Below are positions 1-6,837 of a stretch of 6,838 nt of DNA, in pieces; positions within the stretch are counted from its first letter, which is position 1, and each line of letters begins with the position of its first letter. Source of the stretch: an archaeon (GTDB taxonomy: Archaea; Asgardarchaeota; Hermodarchaeia; Hermodarchaeales; Hermodarchaeaceae). The notes under the pieces are model-generated. The model was given only the letters and a program-made list of their open reading frames with translations. It was not told the origin of the DNA and did not search any database. The stretch lies in contig JABXGU010000765.1 in the NCBI GenBank assembly GCA_016550415.1, forward strand, positions 1 through 6,838, in the 5' to 3' direction. A program made the translations under genes and the position numbers.

Positions 1-111
1 TTGATAGAGCTTTCCAAGTTCATCTAATCCTTTAATATGAGCGTGTTTACTGAAGGTCTTCGGTGGCTGGAAGACCCGGGATTCCTTTGATGTGATTTCA
101 ATTTTACTCAA
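1..111 (-). CDS. acs: Acetyl-CoA synthetase (AMP-forming) N-terminus, partial
   Basis: The first 37 codons of a leftward gene are present; the rest lies beyond the window edge. The peptide begins MSKIEITSKESRVFQPP and continues with KHAHIKGLDELGKLYQ. This resembles the N-terminal cap domain of AMP-forming acetyl-CoA synthetases, which typically reads 'R-V-F-x-P-P-x-x-F-x-x-x-A-x-I-x-x-x-x-x-Y-x-x-L-Y'. That enzyme makes acetyl-CoA from acetate, ATP and CoA in the cytoplasm. The start is a TTG at 111-109, chosen because a GGTGA Shine-Dalgarno sequence (122-118) sits six bases upstream and an in-frame TGA overlaps it, so no earlier start is possible. The catalytic AMP-binding core is outside the window, so a propionyl-CoA synthetase or another acyl-CoA synthetase with the same cap cannot be excluded. 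Confidence 0.72.
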   Translation of the reverse strand, partial: MSKIEITSKESRVFQPPKTFSKHAHIKGLDELGKLYQ

Positions 112-380: not shown

Positions 381-541
381 AGGAAAACCCCTGCTAGCAC
401 CATTGTTTCACCAAGAAGAGAAAGACCAAAATAATAGGCAACTCCCCCGCTGAGTAGGATAGTGAAACCAATAACAACTGATATCGATACGAGAACCCGT
501 GAAGAAACCCGAGAAACTGAAGAATCAGACACTGAGGACAC
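332..541 (-). CDS. Doubtful small two-helix membrane protein, antisense to the archaeosortase start
   Basis: This is a 69-residue frame with a GTG start at 541-539 (a second GTG is at 532-530) and a TGA stop at 334-332. It has a Ser-rich N-terminus, two hydrophobic segments (about residues 17-39 and 44-63), and ends in YAARRHR, a basic tail following a helix. An AGGAG lies 11 bases before the first GTG, rather far for a Shine-Dalgarno site. About 80 bases overlap the 5' end of the archaeosortase gene head to head, and the Ser/Val-rich N-terminus is simply the complement of that gene's charged tail. I do not recognise a family. It may be a chance ORF. In its favour, most of it lies outside any other gene and it looks membrane-like with a positive C-terminus. 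Confidence 0.2.
   Translation of the reverse strand: MSSVSDSSVSRVSSRVLVSISVVIGFTILLSGGVAYYFGLSLLGETMVLAGVFLFTLTFLCWYAARRHR
428..436 (+). promoter_or_regulatory. Weak candidate TATA box for the archaeosortase gene
   Basis: AAAATAATA lies about 30 bases before the GTG at 462. Initiation about 25 bases downstream would give a nearly leaderless transcript, which agrees with the lack of a good Shine-Dalgarno sequence there. The alternative is the AT-rich tract at 294-306 with a longer leader. Confidence 0.25.
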
Positions 542-1106
542 GGAGAAGCCAACTCCTGGAGACCTGATTCTGTATCTAATTATCGCTATTATAGTTACCG
601 TACTAGTATATTTTCTCCCTGAACCCTTCTATCTCGCCATTCCAACAGCCTATTGCTCCGCAGTAATACTAAGCGTCATATCAGTGCCATCAACAATGGT
701 CATCGACTGGACCTACGGCGCAGTATTTGTAAGCGGCATTGGCTTTCAATACCAAATCATCCGAGACTGCACAGGAATCCAAGTCATAGCAGTTTTTGCA
801 GGACTAATACTACCATTACCACGAGGAACATGGAGACGAAAAGCACTCTCCATGGCCGTTGTATCAGCCCTGCTTTTCATAGCAAATGTCTTACGAGTAG
901 TATATGAGATTTGGCTAGTCTACTGGGGAATTATGACATATGAGATGGCCCATTACCCAATGTCGTTCGTTTTAGGTATTATCGGCGTGTTTGCATTATG
1001 TCTAGTTGCTATCTGGTTGATGCCGGGTTTTATTGAGACCTTTGAGGATTTCATCGATTACCTTTTTCCTCCCAAGTCGAAAGTGGACTCATCTGATAGT
1101 TCTTGA
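462..1106 (+). CDS. Archaeosortase/exosortase family membrane transpeptidase
   Basis: A 214-residue integral membrane protein with about five hydrophobic segments (about 34-53, 56-74, 105-120, 127-150 and 167-190). It carries the family's catalytic triad: Cys103 in RDCTGIQ, Arg145 in ANVLRV and His164 in EMAHYP, each near a helix end in the expected order. By analogy with ArtA, such enzymes cut C-terminal sorting tails of exported proteins near the membrane and attach the product to a lipid. The N-terminal 30 residues are unusual: very polar and rich in Thr, Glu, Asp and Arg, probably cytoplasmic and disordered. The GTG at 462 is chosen because an in-frame TAA lies at 432-434 and no ATG, GTG or TTG follows before the first helix. 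No recognisable substrate with a sorting tail is confidently encoded here. The exact archaeosortase subtype cannot be told by eye. Confidence 0.9.
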   Translation: MKPITTDIDTRTREETRETEESDTEDTEKPTPGDLILYLIIAIIVTVLVYFLPEPFYLAIPTAYCSAVILSVISVPSTMVIDWTYGAVFVSGIGFQYQIIRDCTGIQVIAVFAGLILPLPRGTWRRKALSMAVVSALLFIANVLRVVYEIWLVYWGIMTYEMAHYPMSFVLGIIGVFALCLVAIWLMPGFIETFEDFIDYLFPPKSKVDSSDSS

Positions 1107-1311: not shown

Positions 1312-2253
1312 TTGAAAATAAAATATTGTAACTGGGAGCCTGGCAAAGGACTGGAAGATATTCAAGCGAAAATCTATTCGGAAGCTTCTGGGCTGCCTGT
1401 AAGAGTGGAACAAATTCGGGCTCGTAACATGAGCCGGGATCCTTTGATGACTCGATACGCATTGACTGAGGCAGGTGAACCTCTCGCATATATTACATCA
1501 CGGGATTCAAGTTCTGAGCGAGGGCGAACTTATATTGGATATCCTTGGACCATGCCCGGTGTGTCTGCTGATGTCCAAGAGACACTGTATAATGAATTGT
1601 CTGCGTTCTTGGAAAAACGGAAGGAGACAGAAGAAATCGCCACAACAGTGGTACTAACAGCTAAGATTGCTGATAAGCAATTTGCCTACTGGGAGAAAAA
1701 GGGCTTTGTCGAAGACGAAAGACTCTATCGGTATAATCTGGATTTAGATGTCGATGAAATAAGCAAGTGGAAATTGAGTCCCAAACTCAAAGCGTTAGAT
1801 AGTCAAGTAGCAACTACAAAGGATCTGAAACATCTGTATGAACTTTCACAAGTTGATCCCTTGCTTGCTGGAGAATTCAGCACGGAAGAAGCTCGAGAGG
1901 GCTATTTCAAAAACCGTGTACTCAGAGATGGGCATGCAGTAATTCTCTTTGATAAGGGGCAAGCTGTTGCTGCTAGCGCACCACTTCGCATAGAACCCGA
2001 CAAACTCTTTCTCCTCGGAGATGAATCACGAGTCCTGATGCGGTTTACTGCTATCCGTCCTGGATACCAGTATGCTTGGAAGCGCTTGGTATATGAAATC
2101 GCCAAAGAAACAAAGGCTGCAGGATGGAGTAATATTCCCCTACGTTCCACCTTGCACTTTACCACCAATGCACCAGTCGCTATACACTTTGCAGAGATGC
2201 GCCCTGAACTTGAAATGTTTGAAGTCATACTCAAGAAACCGATGACTACATGA
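1312..2253 (+). CDS. Tandem GNAT-like N-acetyltransferase
   Basis: A 313-residue soluble protein that appears to hold two GNAT-fold halves. The first (about 1-146) ends in the typical beta4-alpha4-beta5 pattern FAYWEKKGFVEDERLYRY (124-141). The second (about 165-308) has AVILFDKGQAVAASAPL (209-225) and FTAIRPGYQ (245-253), followed by a helix. GNAT enzymes move an acetyl group from acetyl-CoA to amines. The CoA pyrophosphate-binding loop, normally Q/R-x-x-G-x-G/A, is poorly kept in both halves: PWTMPGVSADVQ in the first and RPGYQYAWK in the second. One or both halves may therefore be weak or non-catalytic. The substrate cannot be predicted. The TTG start is supported by GGAGGT nine bases upstream and a TATA box about 70 bases upstream. 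The gene stands alone and converges on the leftward RecA-like pair. Confidence 0.8.
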   Translation: MKIKYCNWEPGKGLEDIQAKIYSEASGLPVRVEQIRARNMSRDPLMTRYALTEAGEPLAYITSRDSSSERGRTYIGYPWTMPGVSADVQETLYNELSAFLEKRKETEEIATTVVLTAKIADKQFAYWEKKGFVEDERLYRYNLDLDVDEISKWKLSPKLKALDSQVATTKDLKHLYELSQVDPLLAGEFSTEEAREGYFKNRVLRDGHAVILFDKGQAVAASAPLRIEPDKLFLLGDESRVLMRFTAIRPGYQYAWKRLVYEIAKETKAAGWSNIPLRSTLHFTTNAPVAIHFAEMRPELEMFEVILKKPMTT

Positions 2254-2337: not shown

Positions 2338-3018
2338 TTATGTAATGAATTGTAGTGGTTCAGTTTCTGAGAATTGCAGCCAGCGGCCATCAATTTGTGC
2401 ACCACGTACATGAGATAGGCGAACTTGGTGCTGCAAGTGTCCTTTAACTTCCTTGTATCGTGTTTCTATTATACCATCTGTCGAGTAGCCCAGTGTAGCG
2501 ACTATTTCTTTTTCTTGAACTCCTTGCTCCAATATGTAGATAGCTGTGACGCCACGATCTTTTACTTTGGCACATAGAACTTGGAGGAATTTAATGACTG
2601 AGATGGGTGTGGAATATGTCATGAGCGTAGTAATACTATCAATACAAAGGTGACCTTGGTCTAAATCTGAGATTGCTTGGAGTATTATGAGGTTTATCGT
2701 GTTTAGATTATATAGGCTCTGAAAGGCGAAGGGTTCTGATGAAGTCTTTCCTGCAACACAGGAAACTCCGTCAATTATGCGTAGTTTAGCAACATCCTTT
2801 TTGCCAGCATAGGATGCTGCCTTTTCACGTATCTGTTGGGGAGTCCAGACTGTTGTTGCATGTACGCAGGGTTCTCCTTGCTGCAGCCGGTCGCACAAAT
2901 ATCGAATAGCTAATGTTGCTTTTACAACTCCTGGAGGACCATACAAAAGGAGTTGACTACCTCTAGGAATCTGAAGGGCTCCTGATGGTGCAAAGCCTAC
3001 TTGTATGAAATCACTCAC
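2338..3018 (-). CDS. KaiC/RadA-like RecA-superfamily protein with broken P-loop (pseudo-ATPase)
   Basis: A single RecA/KaiC-like domain of 226 residues from GTG 3018. Its Walker A has decayed to GPPGVVKA (27-34): Lys33 remains, but the second glycine is Val32 and the Thr/Ser is Ala34. The KaiC-type glutamate pair after the second strand is missing (ATTVWTPQQ, 54-62). A Walker B-like strand HLCIDS keeps Asp127, and the C-terminal motif HVRGAQIDG (203-211) matches the family's K-x-R-G-x-x-H region. ATP hydrolysis is unlikely; a structural or regulatory partner role is inferred. The gene overlaps its upstream neighbour by eight bases, implying one mRNA and translational coupling. GTG 3018 is preferred because GGTGA (3031-3027) lies eight bases before it; ATG 3027 and ATG 3048 in the same frame are alternatives that add 3 or 10 residues. 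Confidence 0.83.
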   Translation of the reverse strand: MSDFIQVGFAPSGALQIPRGSQLLLYGPPGVVKATLAIRYLCDRLQQGEPCVHATTVWTPQQIREKAASYAGKKDVAKLRIIDGVSCVAGKTSSEPFAFQSLYNLNTINLIILQAISDLDQGHLCIDSITTLMTYSTPISVIKFLQVLCAKVKDRGVTAIYILEQGVQEKEIVATLGYSTDGIIETRYKEVKGHLQHQVRLSHVRGAQIDGRWLQFSETEPLQFIT

Positions 3019-3718
3019 TATCTTCATCACCTGCAAGGCGTAACCCATTCTTCTCTATTAGAACTTCGCGCCAATGCGTTTTGACACTATGCCCGACAAG
3101 GCTGTGCATCCTAAGAACCCAATGTAATTTACCATCAATTCCTTCAACAGTTCTTGTAAAAAATGAGCCATGGACTAGGGCTCGAAGATTTGTTACTAGT
3201 TTAGAATCATGGGCTTGCTCTTCTAAAACTATGATTAGTTTTTTTTCTAAACTTGAGATACGTTGTCCAAGGACATGGACAAAAGTGCGAATCCGTTCTG
3301 GGTCAGGTGCAGCAAGGCTAAGCCCTGATACAGAGTCAAGGATTATGGTGGAACCAGAATCCAAAGTTTTTGCATGATCTGTTACAATTAGGTTGACTTC
3401 GTTAAGATTACCTGGATTACTGATGCGTCTTATTGCATAAGGGTCATTTCGCATCCCAATACGCCAACTGTAAGCATCTATAAATTGTATCTTTGTGTTT
3501 TTTGATTCACTAGGTGTGAGTAGTCCTACTCCACATGCTTGGTTTAGAATTTCAGTGGGAGTGTTCTCAGTGGACAGATAAAGTGCCGCCTGCCCATTAC
3601 GGACAGTTTCCAAGGCAAGTTGAAGGCAAATACATGTCTTACCTGAACCAGGCGGCCCAATTAGCGCGATGCTTGTTCCTTTAGGAAACCCCTCCGGAAT
3701 AATTGGTTCCAAAAACAC
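3011..3718 (-). CDS. KaiC/RadA-like RecA-superfamily ATPase, intact P-loop
   Basis: A 235-residue single-domain RecA-superfamily ATPase from GTG 3718. It shows EGFPKGT (9-15), Walker A GPPGSGKT (21-28), one acidic residue in STEN (Glu51) where KaiC has two glutamates, and Walker B TIILDS with Asp128. The usual KaiC N-terminal signature G-L-D-E-L-L-G-G-G before FPKG is missing or unrecognisable, so the protein begins almost at the first strand. The GTG start is favoured by GAGG (3730-3727) eight bases upstream. The TATA-like tract at 3780-3771 would start transcription near 3750, after the further upstream TTG at 3763, which would add 15 residues. It is the first gene of a leftward pair with the broken-P-loop paralogue. 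The substrate or client is unknown; archaeal relatives are usually annotated as ATPases implicated in signal transduction. Confidence 0.86.
   Translation of the reverse strand: MFLEPIIPEGFPKGTSIALIGPPGSGKTCICLQLALETVRNGQAALYLSTENTPTEILNQACGVGLLTPSESKNTKIQFIDAYSWRIGMRNDPYAIRRISNPGNLNEVNLIVTDHAKTLDSGSTIILDSVSGLSLAAPDPERIRTFVHVLGQRISSLEKKLIIVLEEQAHDSKLVTNLRALVHGSFFTRTVEGIDGKLHWVLRMHSLVGHSVKTHWREVLIEKNGLRLAGDEDSE
3027..3031 (-). promoter_or_regulatory. Internal ribosome-binding site GGTGA inside the upstream gene
   Basis: GGTGA on the minus strand lies eight bases before GTG 3018-3016 and within the last codons of the upstream ATPase gene. It supports coupled translation of the two overlapping genes and the choice of the shorter start. 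Confidence 0.5.
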
Positions 3719-3726
3719 TGCAGTCG

Positions 3727-3730
3727 CCTC
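3727..3730 (-). promoter_or_regulatory. Ribosome-binding site GAGG deciding the GTG 3718 start
   Basis: The minus strand reads GAGG-CGACTGCA-GTG, an eight-base spacing. No comparable site precedes the alternative TTG at 3763. Confidence 0.45.
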
Positions 3731-3770
3731 AAATTGCGAGCACTTACAAGTAAACAATACCAAGCTAATC

Positions 3771-3780
3771 TTTTATTTAT
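3771..3780 (-). promoter_or_regulatory. Candidate TATA box of the leftward RecA-like operon
   Basis: The minus strand reads ATAAATAAAA. Initiation about 25 bases downstream would fall near 3750 and leave a leader of about 30 bases before GTG 3718. Confidence 0.45.
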
Positions 3781-3836
3781 CCCATAGATTAAGCTCATTT
3801 TGGCGAATAAACTTTTAGGCGTTTTACTATTGGGTC

Positions 3837-3848
3837 ACGAAAATTCGT
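3837..3848. repeat. Inverted repeat ACGAA-AA-TTCGT in the divergent promoter region
   Basis: A perfect 5+5 inverted repeat with a two-base centre, placed between the two divergent TATA boxes and about 20 bases upstream of the rightward one. It could be an operator shared by both arms of the cluster; it may also be chance in AT-rich DNA. Confidence 0.3.
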
Positions 3849-3867
3849 TAGCACTCCAACAAAAACC

Positions 3868-3875
3868 TATTAAAT
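3868..3875 (+). promoter_or_regulatory. Candidate TATA box of the rightward KaiC-like/GTPase operon
   Basis: TATTAAAT preceded by an A-rich stretch. Initiation near 3897 would leave about 30 bases of leader with the AGGGG ribosome-binding site. Confidence 0.4.
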
Positions 3876-3916
3876 GAAGGAGCAAGGTAGTTAATTAGTT
3901 AGACCCATTATATTGC

Positions 3917-3921
3917 AGGGG
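3917..3921 (+). promoter_or_regulatory. Ribosome-binding site AGGGG deciding the ATG 3928 start
   Basis: CAGGGG lies six bases before ATG 3928. A TTG at 3913 in the same frame would overlap this site and is rejected as the start. Confidence 0.6.
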
Positions 3922-3927
3922 AATAAC

Positions 3928-4668
3928 ATGAAGGAAAGGACGAAGTCAGGGATACCAGGACTTGATGAAGCACTACACGGTGGCTTCCCGAAAGGCACCA
4001 TCATTCTAGTAAGTGGTGGTCCAGGTACCGGAAAATCAATTTTACTGAATCAATTCCTTGTCAACGGCGCATTATCAATGAATGAGCCTGGTGTGCTAGT
4101 TTCGATGGAAGAACATCTTCAGTCAACTATCAGTAATATGAGTTCATTTGGCTGGGACCTTGAAAAACTTGTAGAAAAAGGAAAAATAGCCCTTGTCGAT
4201 GCTTCTCCAACAATTCAAAACGAACGAGTGGTCCTGAAACCTGAACATCCAATATTAGGACGAGAAGAATTCTCCATGGAGTCCCTTCTGTCATTGATTC
4301 ATCGTGAAATTCGACGAATAAAAGCCAAGCGAGTAGCCATAGATTCTATCTCTACATTAACACTCCAACATGAAAATGTATTCAAGCTTCGCCATGATCT
4401 GCTGAATATGGTCAGATCACTACGAATGACCGCTGCAACATGTCTTGTTGCTGTAGAAAGCCCCTCAGAAGACCGAATTGGGCGCTTCGATGTAGAGGGC
4501 TTTCTAACAGATGGCTGCTTAACAATGAAGCTAACAAGCCAGGGTACGGTCAGAATCCGTACAATAGAAATTGTGAAAATGAGAGGGACAAGCCATCAAA
4601 TGAATCCACTTCACCTCATCATCGGAGACAAGGGGATAGAAGTATCAGATCTTCCACCTATCCAATAG
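3928..4668 (+). CDS. KaiC-like RecA-superfamily ATPase, all motifs intact
   Basis: A 246-residue protein with one complete KaiC domain. In order: the N-terminal signature TKSGIPGLDEALHGGFPKGT (5-24), Walker A GGPGTGKS (30-37), the glutamate pair in VSMEEH (Glu61, Glu62) that in KaiC activates the hydrolytic water, Walker B RVAIDS with Asp139, and the C-terminal KMRGTSH (217-223) that contacts the nucleotide of the next subunit in KaiC rings. It should bind and hydrolyse ATP and may form hexamers (family knowledge). Unlike cyanobacterial KaiC it has one domain, not two, and no kaiA or kaiB is nearby. The start ATG follows AGGGG by six bases. A Ras-like GTPase begins 42 bases downstream on the same strand, so the two are probably co-transcribed. 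Among the five RecA-like domains of the window this is the only one with every active-site element. Confidence 0.92.
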   Translation: MKERTKSGIPGLDEALHGGFPKGTIILVSGGPGTGKSILLNQFLVNGALSMNEPGVLVSMEEHLQSTISNMSSFGWDLEKLVEKGKIALVDASPTIQNERVVLKPEHPILGREEFSMESLLSLIHREIRRIKAKRVAIDSISTLTLQHENVFKLRHDLLNMVRSLRMTAATCLVAVESPSEDRIGRFDVEGFLTDGCLTMKLTSQGTVRIRTIEIVKMRGTSHQMNPLHLIIGDKGIEVSDLPPIQ

Positions 4669-4697
4669 CCCAATTATTCAAAACAAACTCATACTAA

Positions 4698-4701
4698 GGT
4701 G
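4698..4701 (+). promoter_or_regulatory. Ribosome-binding site GGTG of the small GTPase
   Basis: GGTG lies nine bases before ATG 4711, in the 42-base gap after the KaiC-like gene. Its presence supports independent ribosome loading on a shared mRNA. Confidence 0.5.
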
Positions 4702-4710
4702 TAACATCAA

Positions 4711-5241
4711 ATGAGTCAAACACCTCGTTTATACACATTCAAGATATCAGTCATCGGCGACTATGCAGTCGGAAAAACATCTCTAATCAAAAGGTATATG
4801 ACAAATTCATTCGACGAAGGCTACCTTGCTACATTAGGGGCAGCCATTTCAAACTTTGAAAGCAGTGTTGGAAAGGATAAGGTTCAGCTACAAGTTTGGG
4901 ATTTAGCGGGCCAAACCTCTTTTAGAAGGGTTAGGGTTCAATATCTCTTTGGCACAGAATTTGCAATTGTCGTTTTTGATGTTACAAGGAAAGAATCTCT
5001 TGAATGTGTTATTGAGTGGGTTGAGGATGTACGTCAAGGTGCTCCTGAGGTTCTCCTTTATTTAGTCGGTAACAAATGTGACTTGAAAGAAGACCGTGTA
5101 GTTGAAGCAGATTCAGCACAAGCTATCATGAAGAAACTCAATATGGTAGGTTATTTGGAAACTTCTGCAAAAGAGGGAACAAATGTCAAAAATCTTTTCC
5201 AGGAAATCGTTCAGATACTTCATGAACGAGCTCAAAGATAA
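4711..5241 (+). CDS. Ras/Rab-like small GTPase
   Basis: A 176-residue protein spanning exactly one Ras-superfamily G domain. All five G boxes are present: G1 GDYAVGKT (16-23), G2 Thr41 in ATLGA, G3 DLAGQ (64-68) with the catalytic Gln68 kept, G4 NKCD (121-124), and G5 ETSAK (150-154). It should switch between GDP and GTP states. The C-terminus stops at HERAQR right after the last helix, with no cysteine for prenylation and no hypervariable tail, so membrane attachment of the eukaryotic type is not expected. Such Rab/Ras-like proteins are abundant in Asgard archaea, which is the main taxonomic clue here. It follows a KaiC-like ATPase by 42 bases and precedes a GvpD-like gene by 132 bases. This suggests a shared regulatory circuit, but partners such as longin or roadblock proteins are not in the window. 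Confidence 0.95.
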   Translation: MSQTPRLYTFKISVIGDYAVGKTSLIKRYMTNSFDEGYLATLGAAISNFESSVGKDKVQLQVWDLAGQTSFRRVRVQYLFGTEFAIVVFDVTRKESLECVIEWVEDVRQGAPEVLLYLVGNKCDLKEDRVVEADSAQAIMKKLNMVGYLETSAKEGTNVKNLFQEIVQILHERAQR

Positions 5242-5329
5242 TTAATAGAAGGTCTATTTGAAAGTGAAAACTGCATTGAAATCTATGTATTTAGCTGGAA
5301 AATTTCAAGTAATTAGGGTCACAGGGAAA

Positions 5330-5336
5330 TTTATTA
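5330..5336 (+). promoter_or_regulatory. Candidate TATA box of the GvpD-like gene
   Basis: TTTATTA sits about 40 bases before GTG 5374, in the 132-base gap after the GTPase gene. Initiation near 5357 would give a short leader. If used, the GvpD-like gene has its own promoter besides any read-through from the GTPase gene. Confidence 0.35.
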
Positions 5337-5373
5337 GATTGTAAACAGAGAGTAAAGTGAGCGAGAGTGGGTT

Positions 5374-6837
5374 GTGCTAATCGTGTCTTTCCCTCAAGAA
5401 ATCAATGAGTTCCTTAACCGTGTACAAGGACAGACAATTATTATTAAAGGCAGGTCAGGAACTGGAAAGACAACATTTACACTCTCAATGCTAGCTAGTT
5501 TGGTAGAATTAGCATCAGAGAAGTTCAAACCAGATAATTTCATCTATTTGTCATCCAGCGTCGCTACCGCTAATCTCCGAACCCAATTCCCCTGGGTCTT
5601 CGATTTTATACCAGAGAACAATATCCTTGATGCTTCCCCATCACTTGGTAGTCTTTCAGAGACTTCCTTGGAGTCTCGTAATGAATCCATGTCACGAATT
5701 GTATATTCTGATGAACTCACATTCATCAGTGCAGTTAATGACAGGCTGCAGACTCTTCAAAATGGTGTTTGTATAATCGACTCCTTTGATTCAGTGGTCG
5801 AAGCAGCACACGCTGATTCACGTCGATTAGCCAGCGCTTTAACTAATTTAGGTCGAACCTCCAACGCTAAAATCATACTCATCACTGAAGGCGATGAAGA
5901 AAGCCCTCTTGATCATATTGTTGATGGTATTTTATGTTTAATAAAAAGCACAGAGAATGGGCGTATTTGGCGCACATTACGCATCGATAAACTTCGTGGT
6001 ACACATATAGACCAAAGTCATTATGGCTTCACTTTGTTTGATAACAAATTCAGAATTCTTCAACCATATGATATTGACTTGGCTCATCGCCTTTCAGCTT
6101 TCAAAGTGATATCACATGGTGGTGGTCGATTCTCCTCAGGGCTGAAAGAACTTGATGACATATTTGGAGGCTTTCGTCGTGGTAGCACATTTTTCATTGA
6201 AGTTGGAAAACGTGTTTCCAATGAAGTTGTCAACACCTTTTTGCTAAACATCATTGCCAATTTCATTCTTCAAGAGAGTGGAGTAATTATCATTCCCCCA
6301 AATAAGCTAAGTCATCGCAGATTAAAATCTGCAGCACTACGCCTAGGTTTTGTTGACCAACTGAATACGCGTCTTCGTTTTCTGGCTAGTTCTGCGACTA
6401 CTCTTAGTGTTGAGAGTACTGCATCAGAAATGGGAGAACCCTATTATAAGACAGTGGCTATCAGAGAAAGCAATGATTTAGAGAATGCTTGGAATATGGT
6501 GCTAGAAGAATTGCGCAACCAGAAATGCTCCACGCTCTTAAATATCGTTGGCTTTGGATGGCTACACTCTTGGCTTGGCTCTGAACCACTTCCGCGATGG
6601 GCAACCCGTATTGCCACTGACACTGCAACTGAAAGTAATCTAGCAGTTGTCATAGGTTATGAAAGCACAGCAGATACAAATCAATTCCTTGCTGACCTTG
6701 CAGATATCCATATGGTTTTAAATGTCAAGGCAGGTGTGACCATTCTCCAAGGGGTCAATCCCCCAACTGCTCAATATTGTGTATTCACAAAACTTGTGGA
6801 GGGTAAACCACAAATTGGCTTCCAAGAACTCGCCTAA
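5374..6837 (+). CDS. GvpD-like protein with two RecA/KaiC-type domains, the second lacking a P-loop
   Basis: A 487-residue protein ending one base before the window edge. Domain 1 (about 1-230) has Walker A GRSGTGKT (26-33), Walker B CIIDSFD with Asp136 and KLRGTHI (206-212), but no glutamate pair (YLSSSVA, 58-64). The pattern P-x-E-I-x-x-F-L ... I-I-I-K-G-x-x-G-T-G-K-T ... Q-F-P-W resembles the P-loop region of GvpD, a regulator of gas vesicle genes in haloarchaea, and the length is similar. Domain 2 (about 245-487) opens with the KaiC signature SSGLKELDDIFGGFRRGS (254-271), yet its P-loop position reads IEVGKRVSNEVV (275-286) with no GK[ST], and its Walker B-like strand LLNIVGFG (388-395) lacks Asp. 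No gas vesicle gene is visible, so a general KaiC-type signalling role is as likely as gvp control. GTG 5374 is used; GTG 5383 is an alternative. The ribosome-binding site is weak. Confidence 0.83.
   Translation: MLIVSFPQEINEFLNRVQGQTIIIKGRSGTGKTTFTLSMLASLVELASEKFKPDNFIYLSSSVATANLRTQFPWVFDFIPENNILDASPSLGSLSETSLESRNESMSRIVYSDELTFISAVNDRLQTLQNGVCIIDSFDSVVEAAHADSRRLASALTNLGRTSNAKIILITEGDEESPLDHIVDGILCLIKSTENGRIWRTLRIDKLRGTHIDQSHYGFTLFDNKFRILQPYDIDLAHRLSAFKVISHGGGRFSSGLKELDDIFGGFRRGSTFFIEVGKRVSNEVVNTFLLNIIANFILQESGVIIIPPNKLSHRRLKSAALRLGFVDQLNTRLRFLASSATTLSVESTASEMGEPYYKTVAIRESNDLENAWNMVLEELRNQKCSTLLNIVGFGWLHSWLGSEPLPRWATRIATDTATESNLAVVIGYESTADTNQFLADLADIHMVLNVKAGVTILQGVNPPTAQYCVFTKLVEGKPQIGFQELA

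What the first reader, a model, noticed from the sequence alone, without database searches (positions are those of the whole stretch)
2338..6837. Compact module of four RecA/KaiC-like genes with graded active-site decay plus a Ras-like GTPase
Seen directly: five RecA-like domains in four genes are arranged on two divergent arms with a Ras-like GTPase inside one arm. Their active sites form a series. 3928-4668 is intact, with Walker A, two Glu and Walker B Asp. 3011-3718 has an intact P-loop and one Glu. 5374-6837 domain 1 has a P-loop but no Glu. 2338-3018 has a broken P-loop and no Glu. 5374-6837 domain 2 has no P-loop and no Walker B Asp. Established: KaiC-like proteins form rings in which subunits contribute to each other's active sites, and mixed active/inactive RecA paralogues are common (Rad51 paralogues). 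Inference: the genes encode a heteromeric ATPase assembly coupled to a GTPase switch, a candidate uncharacterised Asgard signalling system.
Basis: partly seen in the sequence, partly recalled or inferred. Interest (0 to 1): 0.72.

Follow-up and report, generated by a model that had tools for sequence, protein, structure and literature searches.

The report
Asgard KaiC-like ATPase signalling gene cluster
A gene cluster from uncultured Asgard archaea encodes four relatives of the clock protein KaiC plus a small switch GTPase; two neighbouring KaiC-like proteins have each kept a different half of the ATP-splitting site, so they probably work only together as part of a sensing circuit.

Summary
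In detail: four KaiC-family genes (K4, K3, K1, a two-domain GvpD-like protein) and an intact Ras-like GTPase. The active-site states recur in homologues, so they are not random decay.

Two things change the reading. First, the decay is a partition. K3 keeps its P-loop (52 of 52 sequences with letters) but none of 57 keeps the Lys or Arg finger that KaiC inserts into its neighbour's site. K4 has no GK-type P-loop (0 of 47) yet keeps the finger Arg (50 of 50). This predicts a K3:K4 heteromer with shared sites.

Second, the unit is larger. A stand-alone receiver gene follows the GvpD-like gene in 8 of 9 genomes; a multi-PAS kinase-like gene and an archaeosortase-like gene flank Hermodarchaeia loci. 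Strong K1, K3 and K4 hits share the same few of 227 genomes, including one distant lineage (G189) with changed order.

The GTPase is frequent but optional (6 of 9 genomes), and the kinase domain is degenerate in 2 of 6 loci. Most likely a KaiC-based, two-component-linked signalling complex: a new variant of the proposed archaeal KaiC hub kind. Function and all complexes are inferred; no interface was tested.

The parts
2338..3027 (-).
   Evidence: PF06745 73.5 bits, PF24336 48.9 bits; 52 homologues; fold model pLDDT 90.6
2917..2940 (-). K4 degenerate P-loop GPPGVVKA; no Gly before the Lys in 47 of 47 sequences with letters
2401..2412 (-). K4 finger motif HVRG; Arg kept in 50 of 50 sequences with letters
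   Evidence: aligned to the KaiC KxRG site
3011..3718 (-). K3: single-domain KaiC-like protein with intact P-loop, one Glu
   Evidence: PF06745 70.6 bits; 56 proteins matched, one of them the window's own
3635..3658 (-). K3 P-loop GPPGSGKT, intact in 52 of 52 with letters
3092..3103 (-). K3 former finger site SLVG; neither Lys nor Arg in 57 of 57
3928..4668 (+). K1: complete KaiC-like ATPase (P-loop 4015-4038, Glu pair 4108-4113, finger KMRG 4576-4587)
   Evidence: PF06745 227.9 bits; best PDB sequence match a designed KaiC, E 3.5e-71
4711..5241 (+). Ras-like GTPase with intact nucleotide-binding motifs (GDYAVGKTS, DLAGQ, NKCD, SAK); optional member
   Evidence: PF00071 158.9 bits; present between K1 and GvpD-like in L002, L003, L049, L051, absent in L006, L007, L050
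5374..6837 (+). GvpD-like two-domain KaiC-like protein: domain 1 with P-loop 5449-5472 and finger KLRG 5989-6000 but no Glu pair; domain 2 without P-loop or Walker B Asp
   Evidence: PF07088 57.2 bits, PF20440 31.9 bits; 31 homologues
462..1106 (+). Archaeosortase/exosortase-like membrane protein, conserved neighbour in Hermodarchaeia
   Evidence: TIGR04178 48 bits over cut-off 23; in all 7 loci L001-L007; strong hits (277 bits or more) in 8 of 227 genomes

Best explanation
The cluster encodes a KaiC-type signalling complex linked to two-component signalling. Shown: K3 and K4 are adjacent or overlapping, co-inherited KaiC-like paralogues whose active-site halves are complementary; K1 has a complete KaiC-like site; the GvpD-like gene is followed by, and as an ORF overlaps, a stand-alone receiver gene in relatives; multi-PAS kinase-like genes sit in the same neighbourhood. 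Inferred: K3 and K4 form an alternating ring in which ATP held by the K3 P-loop is completed by the K4 Arg from the next subunit, giving three competent and three dead interfaces. K1 supplies ATPase or autokinase activity. A kinase phosphorylates the receiver, which binds the GvpD-like hub and changes its nucleotide state or its docking to the K rings. Where present, the Ras-like GTPase is a second input or output switch on the hub.
For: Complementary loss: K3 52/52 P-loop, 0/57 finger Lys or Arg; K4 0/47 Gly of GK, 50/50 finger Arg. It also holds in the distant G189 pair (GKPGSGKT and no finger; GPPGSAK and VRG). The gapless finger alignment to solved KaiC is; that K224 and R226 come from subunit n+1 is in PMC2777353 (passages). 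Second genes of KaiC-like pairs in another Asgard group mostly keep both halves (GPLGSGKT-type plus RMRG). K3-K4 adjacent in 8 of 8 loci where both lie on one contig, window included. K1, K3 and K4 each form one clade with G189 outermost. Receiver directly after the GvpD-like gene in 8 of 9 genomes, all 8 over the PF00072 cut-off; in G189 it is elsewhere in the cluster. A multi-PAS kinase-like gene is next to the archaeosortase-like gene in 6 of 6 loci long enough, with HATPase_c over cut-off in 4. In G177 a K3/K4-like domain is fused to a receiver beside K1-like and Ras genes. A Ras-like gene lies within 300 bp of 14 of 74 GvpD-like genes, against about 0.4 expected from the Pfam density (arithmetic).
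Against: No physical interface was tested or predicted. K4 keeps the P-loop Lys and Walker B Asp, so it may still bind nucleotide. K4 lacks the finger Lys (0 of 50), so a shared site would have one basic finger, not two. K3 mostly has Asn in place of the second Glu. The kinase gene is missing at its usual place in the window (window 1-111 is the next gene); in L005 and L007 its HATPase_c is below cut-off (21.9 and 22 against 26.4), and HisKA is below cut-off or absent in all 6. The GTPase is absent at the module in 3 of 9 genomes, and Ras genes beside GvpD-like genes fall in several branches. Fifty-six of 74 GvpD-like genes have no Ras-like gene within the up to 3 kb held on each side.
Confidence: 0.47

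Rival explanations
1. Each KaiC-like protein works alone or as a homo-oligomer: K1 is an enzyme, K3 an ATP-bound non-hydrolysing switch like ArlH, K4 and GvpD-like domain 2 structural pseudo-enzymes. They are neighbours because they are co-regulated.
For: ArlH binds but does not hydrolyse ATP and still hexamerises (PMC8978795, passages). Loss of a finger in K3 is what a non-hydrolysing switch could show. Degenerate KaiC-like domains are called iKaiC in PMC5847659 (passages).
Against: It does not explain why K4 keeps the finger Arg in 50 of 50 sequences after losing the P-loop, nor the K3-K4 adjacency and nearly identical phyletic sets.
Confidence: 0.32
2. The cluster regulates a cell-surface system: the KaiC-like proteins act on the neighbouring archaeosortase pathway or on a pilus-like machine, as ArlH acts on the archaellum motor.
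For: Archaeosortase-like gene beside K4, directly or with one gene between, in 7 of 7 Hermodarchaeia loci and the window; K3 matches ArlH profiles weakly, far below their cut-off.
Against: No match to this archaeosortase at E 1e-8 in G189 or G226, which have module genes. I recognised no pilus or archaellum motor gene among the flanking genes that I scanned or read in L001-L007, but not every flanking gene was scanned.
Confidence: 0.1
3. A GvpD-like repressor module: the GvpD-like protein promotes breakdown of a transcription activator, as haloarchaeal GvpD does with GvpE.
For: PF07088 and PF20440 over their cut-offs; GvpD needs its P-loop and arginine-rich region (PMC4390858, passages).
Against: The partner kept next to it is a receiver. 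No GvpE-like gene was recognised, but none was searched for. Gas vesicle family PF00741 gave 0 of 10 genomes, but its control also rang nowhere, so inconclusive.
Confidence: 0.06
4. DNA recombination mediators, like Rad51/RadB paralogue complexes.
For: RecA-superfamily fold; RadB (below cut-off) and RAD51 homologue 4 (26 bits) profile hits for K3.
Against: Best family matches are KaiC-like; receiver, kinase-like and GTPase context; no DNA-repair neighbour recognised among the genes read.
Confidence: 0.04

Closest known systems
Archaeal KaiC-like ATPases as signal hubs (Makarova, Galperin and Koonin 2017, cited in PMC5847659; the 2017 paper was not held and not read)
   Same: KaiC-like and inactivated KaiC-like domains associated with receivers and PAS domains
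   Different: Four linked KaiC-family genes, a complementary K3/K4 pair and a Ras-like GTPase. PMC5847659 (passages) reports the KaiC-REC fusion solely in Methanosarcinaceae; here one is seen in the Asgard genome G177
Cyanobacterial KaiC with SasA and RpaA (the output pair is recalled)
   Same: Fold, P-loop, Glu pair and trans Lys/Arg finger in K1; two-domain architecture of the GvpD-like protein; kinase-like and receiver genes nearby
   Different: In KaiC both halves are fused and carry the catalytic residues; here elements are split between genes. KaiA and KaiB were not looked for
GvpD of haloarchaeal gas vesicle clusters
   Same: PF07088 P-loop domain and part of PF20440 basic region 2
   Different: Receiver and KaiC-like neighbours; about 74 of 254 PF20440 positions matched
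ArlH (FlaH) of the archaellum
   Same: Single KaiC-like domain; a precedent for a member that binds but does not hydrolyse ATP
   Different: K3 has lost the finger site and is paired with K4; no motor ATPase gene was recognised nearby
Elongator Elp456
   Same: Heteromeric RecA-like hexameric ring of paralogues that lack consensus P-loops (PMC11050213, passages)
   Different: Eukaryotic tRNA-modification accessory complex; analogy only, no membership claimed

Membership tests
KaiC ATPase family (PF06745) | Profile match over the curated cut-off | tested here: met
   K1 227.9, K4 73.5, K3 70.6, GvpD-like 51 bits; cut-off 26.6
KaiC ATPase family, catalytically complete member | P-loop, Glu pair, Walker B Asp and trans K-x-R finger in one domain | tested here: not met
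   Met only by K1; K3 lacks the finger, K4 the P-loop Gly and Glu, GvpD-like domain 1 the Glu pair
GvpD family (PF07088, PF20440) | Profile match over the curated cut-offs | tested here: met
   57.2 over 24 and 31.9 over 27.9 bits, the second over part of the profile
GvpD family | Gas vesicle gene context | tested here: inconclusive
   PF00741 in 0 of 10 genomes, but the control rang nowhere
Ras family GTPases (PF00071) | Profile match and intact G motifs | tested here: met
   158.9 bits over 21.6; motifs read
Heteromeric RecA-like ring ATPase | Co-assembly of K3 and K4 in one ring with shared sites | not testable with these tools
   No complex prediction available; only sequence complementarity
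Two-component system | Receiver encoded with the module | tested here: met
   PF00072 62.6 to 86.8 bits over 30.2 in 8 receivers next to GvpD-like genes of relatives; not inside the window
Two-component system | Active histidine kinase encoded with the module | tested here: inconclusive
   HATPase_c over cut-off in L001-L004 (71.8 to 82.4 bits), below in L005 and L007; HisKA never over cut-off in these six; no such gene at that place in the window
Archaeosortase/exosortase | TIGR04178 signature over cut-off | tested here: met
   48 over 23 bits; Cys103, Arg121 and Arg145 invariant in 7 sequences (that these are catalytic is recalled)

The most novel reading that the evidence does not exclude
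K3 and K4 are a KaiC-type ATPase split by gene duplication into a P-loop subunit and a finger-donating pseudo-enzyme. They form an obligate hetero-ring coupled at one locus to a receiver-based phosphorelay and, in many lineages, to a Ras-like GTPase: an archaeal circuit that joins KaiC, two-component and small-GTPase signalling.
Probability: 0.33. Interest if true: 0.78.

Novelty: new variant of a known kind. Interest (0 to 1): 0.6.

Why it matters
Asgard genomes carry tens of Ras-like genes (23 to 49 in the six searched) whose circuits are largely unknown; here one sits in a conserved signalling locus with KaiC-like hubs and a receiver. The K3/K4 pair also gives a directly testable case of one ATPase site divided between two paralogous genes, a step thought to underlie hetero-ring machines.

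Tried and rejected
Gas vesicle regulation: the PF00741 search was uninformative, as the control rang nowhere. One shared GTPase orthologue across GvpD-like loci: the Ras tree has several branches and a weak backbone, so neither one nor many origins is shown. Origin of K3 and K4 by one duplication: the tree is compatible but long branches meet and the relevant support is 88-90, so this stays open. A kinase gene between the archaeosortase-like gene and its usual neighbour in the window: rejected, window 1-111 minus is already that neighbour (51 bits to an acetyl-CoA synthetase-like gene; family checked in L002). Receiver start at the window's right edge: the frame overlapping the GvpD-like end is open and resembles the start in L002 and L051, but that overlap follows from GvpD-like conservation, so it is only consistent. 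Novelty in print: listings of searches of the held library showed no paper on such a cluster; the 2017 KaiC hub paper is not held.

Limits: the whole-genome searches scored at most 7-12 candidates per genome, so weak paralogues may be missed. The Ras control was 3 genes in 400 kb of 20 stretches that I chose at round coordinates on long contigs; Pfam gave 208 matches in about 22 Mb of 6 genomes. The Ras profile was trained partly on module loci, and the GvpD-like loci are not independent (7 of the 14 close pairs are one group, G085-G092). Two GvpD-like genes in one stretch were counted separately; flanks were shorter than 3 kb at contig ends; GvpD-like genes of L001-L007 were not in the 74.
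Full report
What is there. The window encodes, left to right: the N-terminus of an acetyl-CoA synthetase-like gene (1-111, minus), an archaeosortase-like protein (462-1106), a 313-aa protein without family match (1312-2253), then K4 (minus), K3 (minus), K1, a Ras-like GTPase and a GvpD-like protein. K4, K3, K1 and the GvpD-like protein all pass the KaiC cut-off in Pfam.

Active sites. PMC2777353 (passages) describes KaiC CI: E77 and E78, the P-loop Lys K52, and K224 and R226 supplied by the next subunit (n+1). K1 has all of these. K3 keeps the P-loop (52 of 52 with letters) and one Glu (54 of 54 with letters), but has no Lys or Arg at the finger site (0 of 57). K4 has lost the Gly of the P-loop GK (0 of 47) and the Glu pair, but keeps the P-loop Lys (47 of 47), the Walker B Asp (53 of 53) and the finger Arg (50 of 50), with no finger Lys (0 of 50). 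The GvpD-like domain 1 keeps the P-loop in the 24 of 26 with letters and KLRG in 26 of 26, without the Glu pair. These counts use the window plus all listed matches, and rows 1-25 of 31 (the six most distant rows were left out); in K3 the window is counted twice, as P0032 is its own protein. The alignment of the finger site to solved KaiC has no gap for K1 and K4. The distant pair of G189 shows the same partition. In another Asgard group most second genes of a KaiC-like pair keep both P-loop and R-M-R-G. Other K3/K4-like genes differ: L016, L020, L027, L031, L041-L044 and L047 are degenerate in other ways, and the L057 fusion keeps the P-loop without the finger. I read K3 and K4 as complementary loss after duplication; the tree does not settle the duplication itself.

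Neighbourhood. A scan of the genome collection with the K4 alignment gave 7 loci; six record titles name Hermodarchaeota or Hermodarchaeum, the seventh an archaeon isolate labelled Hermod. The block is: receiver, GvpD-like, optional Ras, K1, then K3-K4 on the other strand, optional phosphoribosyltransferase, archaeosortase-like, multi-PAS kinase-like, acetyl-CoA synthetase-like. Among 227 genomes of the phylum, strong K4 hits are in 8 (G001-G006, G071, G189); K3 in the same 8 plus an 80-residue copy at a contig end in G070; K1 in 8 (G004 missing at a contig end, G070 added), with four further genomes (G077-G080) at about 270 bits; the GvpD-like family in 9 (with G070 and G226, without G004); the archaeosortase in 8 (G001-G006, G070, G071), then G177 and G178 at about 140 bits. 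That G070 belongs with Hermodarchaeia is my inference from the trees. G189 holds kinase-like genes, GvpD-like, K1, K3, K4, Ras and a HisKA-plus-receiver gene in a changed order. G226 has receiver, GvpD-like and Ras, without K1, K3 or K4 on that stretch. K1, K3 and K4 trees each have G189 outermost, a side made of L006, L007 and G071 rows, and the window beside the other Hermodarchaeia.

Two-component parts. All 8 receivers next to GvpD-like genes pass PF00072. The kinase-like gene is a multi-PAS protein in 6 of 6 loci; HATPase_c passes its cut-off in L001-L004 and falls short in L005 and L007, and HisKA is below cut-off or not listed in all six. The weak kinases lie in the subgroup that also lacks the Ras-like gene and has a phosphoribosyltransferase gene instead. 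So the receiver is the constant part; the kinase is not shown to be active everywhere.

GTPase. In the 9 genomes with a close GvpD-like gene, a Ras-like gene lies within the cluster in 6 (G001, G002, G003, G070, G189, G226) and not in 3 (G005, G006, G071). In a wider set, 18 of 74 GvpD-like genes have a Ras-like gene within 3 kb, 14 within 300 bp; the control density (3 in 400 kb) predicts 2.7 Ras genes in the flanks, and the Pfam density (208 in about 22 Mb) about 3.5. The cases cluster by lineage, and the Ras genes fall in several branches with weak backbone support. The link is therefore recurrent but not universal. Elsewhere Ras-like genes sit with roadblock-domain genes (over the Pfam cut-off in L039 and L040, just below in L046), and in L039 a thioredoxin and a WD40 gene, near a K1-like and K4-like pair. 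In G177 Ras and K1-like genes sit by a K3/K4-like protein fused to a receiver.

How it may work. Shown: gene linkage, co-inheritance, motif partition, predicted folds. Inferred: K3 and K4 assemble so that the K4 Arg completes the K3 site; the receiver brings a kinase signal to the GvpD-like hub; the GTPase modulates it. ArlH is a precedent for a KaiC-like protein that acts by ATP binding and oligomer change (PMC8978795, passages), GvpD for a regulator that needs its P-loop (PMC4390858, passages), and Elp456 for a hetero-ring of degenerate RecA-like paralogues (PMC11050213, passages).

Known or new. Galperin and others (PMC5847659, passages) describe KaiC-like ATPases as proposed archaeal signal hubs, inactivated KaiC domains, and KaiC-receiver fusions solely in Methanosarcinaceae in their data. 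The present cluster fits that kind. New here, as far as the listings of searches show, are the complementary K3/K4 pair, the Ras-like partner and the Asgard KaiC-receiver fusion. I rate it a new variant of a known kind, with the complex and its function unproven.

Noticed in passing
window 462-1106: Archaeosortase-like gene whose strong orthologues occur in 8 of 227 genomes, those grouped with Hermodarchaeia; substrate not identified.
   Followed up: partly
window 1312-2253: 313-aa protein with no Pfam or NCBIfam match and no counterpart in L001-L007; looks acetyltransferase-like by eye only.
   Followed up: no
L005 728-1336, L006 10721-11323, L007 10721-11344: A phosphoribosyltransferase-like gene (L006 copy matches PF00156) sits beside K4 in these three loci, whose genomes lack the Ras-like gene at the module; in L005 and L007 the kinase-like gene has a weak kinase domain.
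   Followed up: partly
L057 9144-10454: K3/K4-like KaiC domain fused to a receiver domain in an Asgard genome (G177), next to K1-like and Ras-like genes.
   Followed up: partly
L041 5442-6918, L043 9041-10525, L047 3484-4922: Degenerate KaiC-like proteins next to a small nucleotidyltransferase-like gene (PF01909 over cut-off in L041 and L043, just below in L047).
   Followed up: partly
L039 4771-9649, L040 2907-7451, L045 5062-9792, L046 8829-11881: Ras-like genes near a KaiC-like pair in another Asgard group, with roadblock, WD40 or thioredoxin-like genes that vary by locus.
   Followed up: partly
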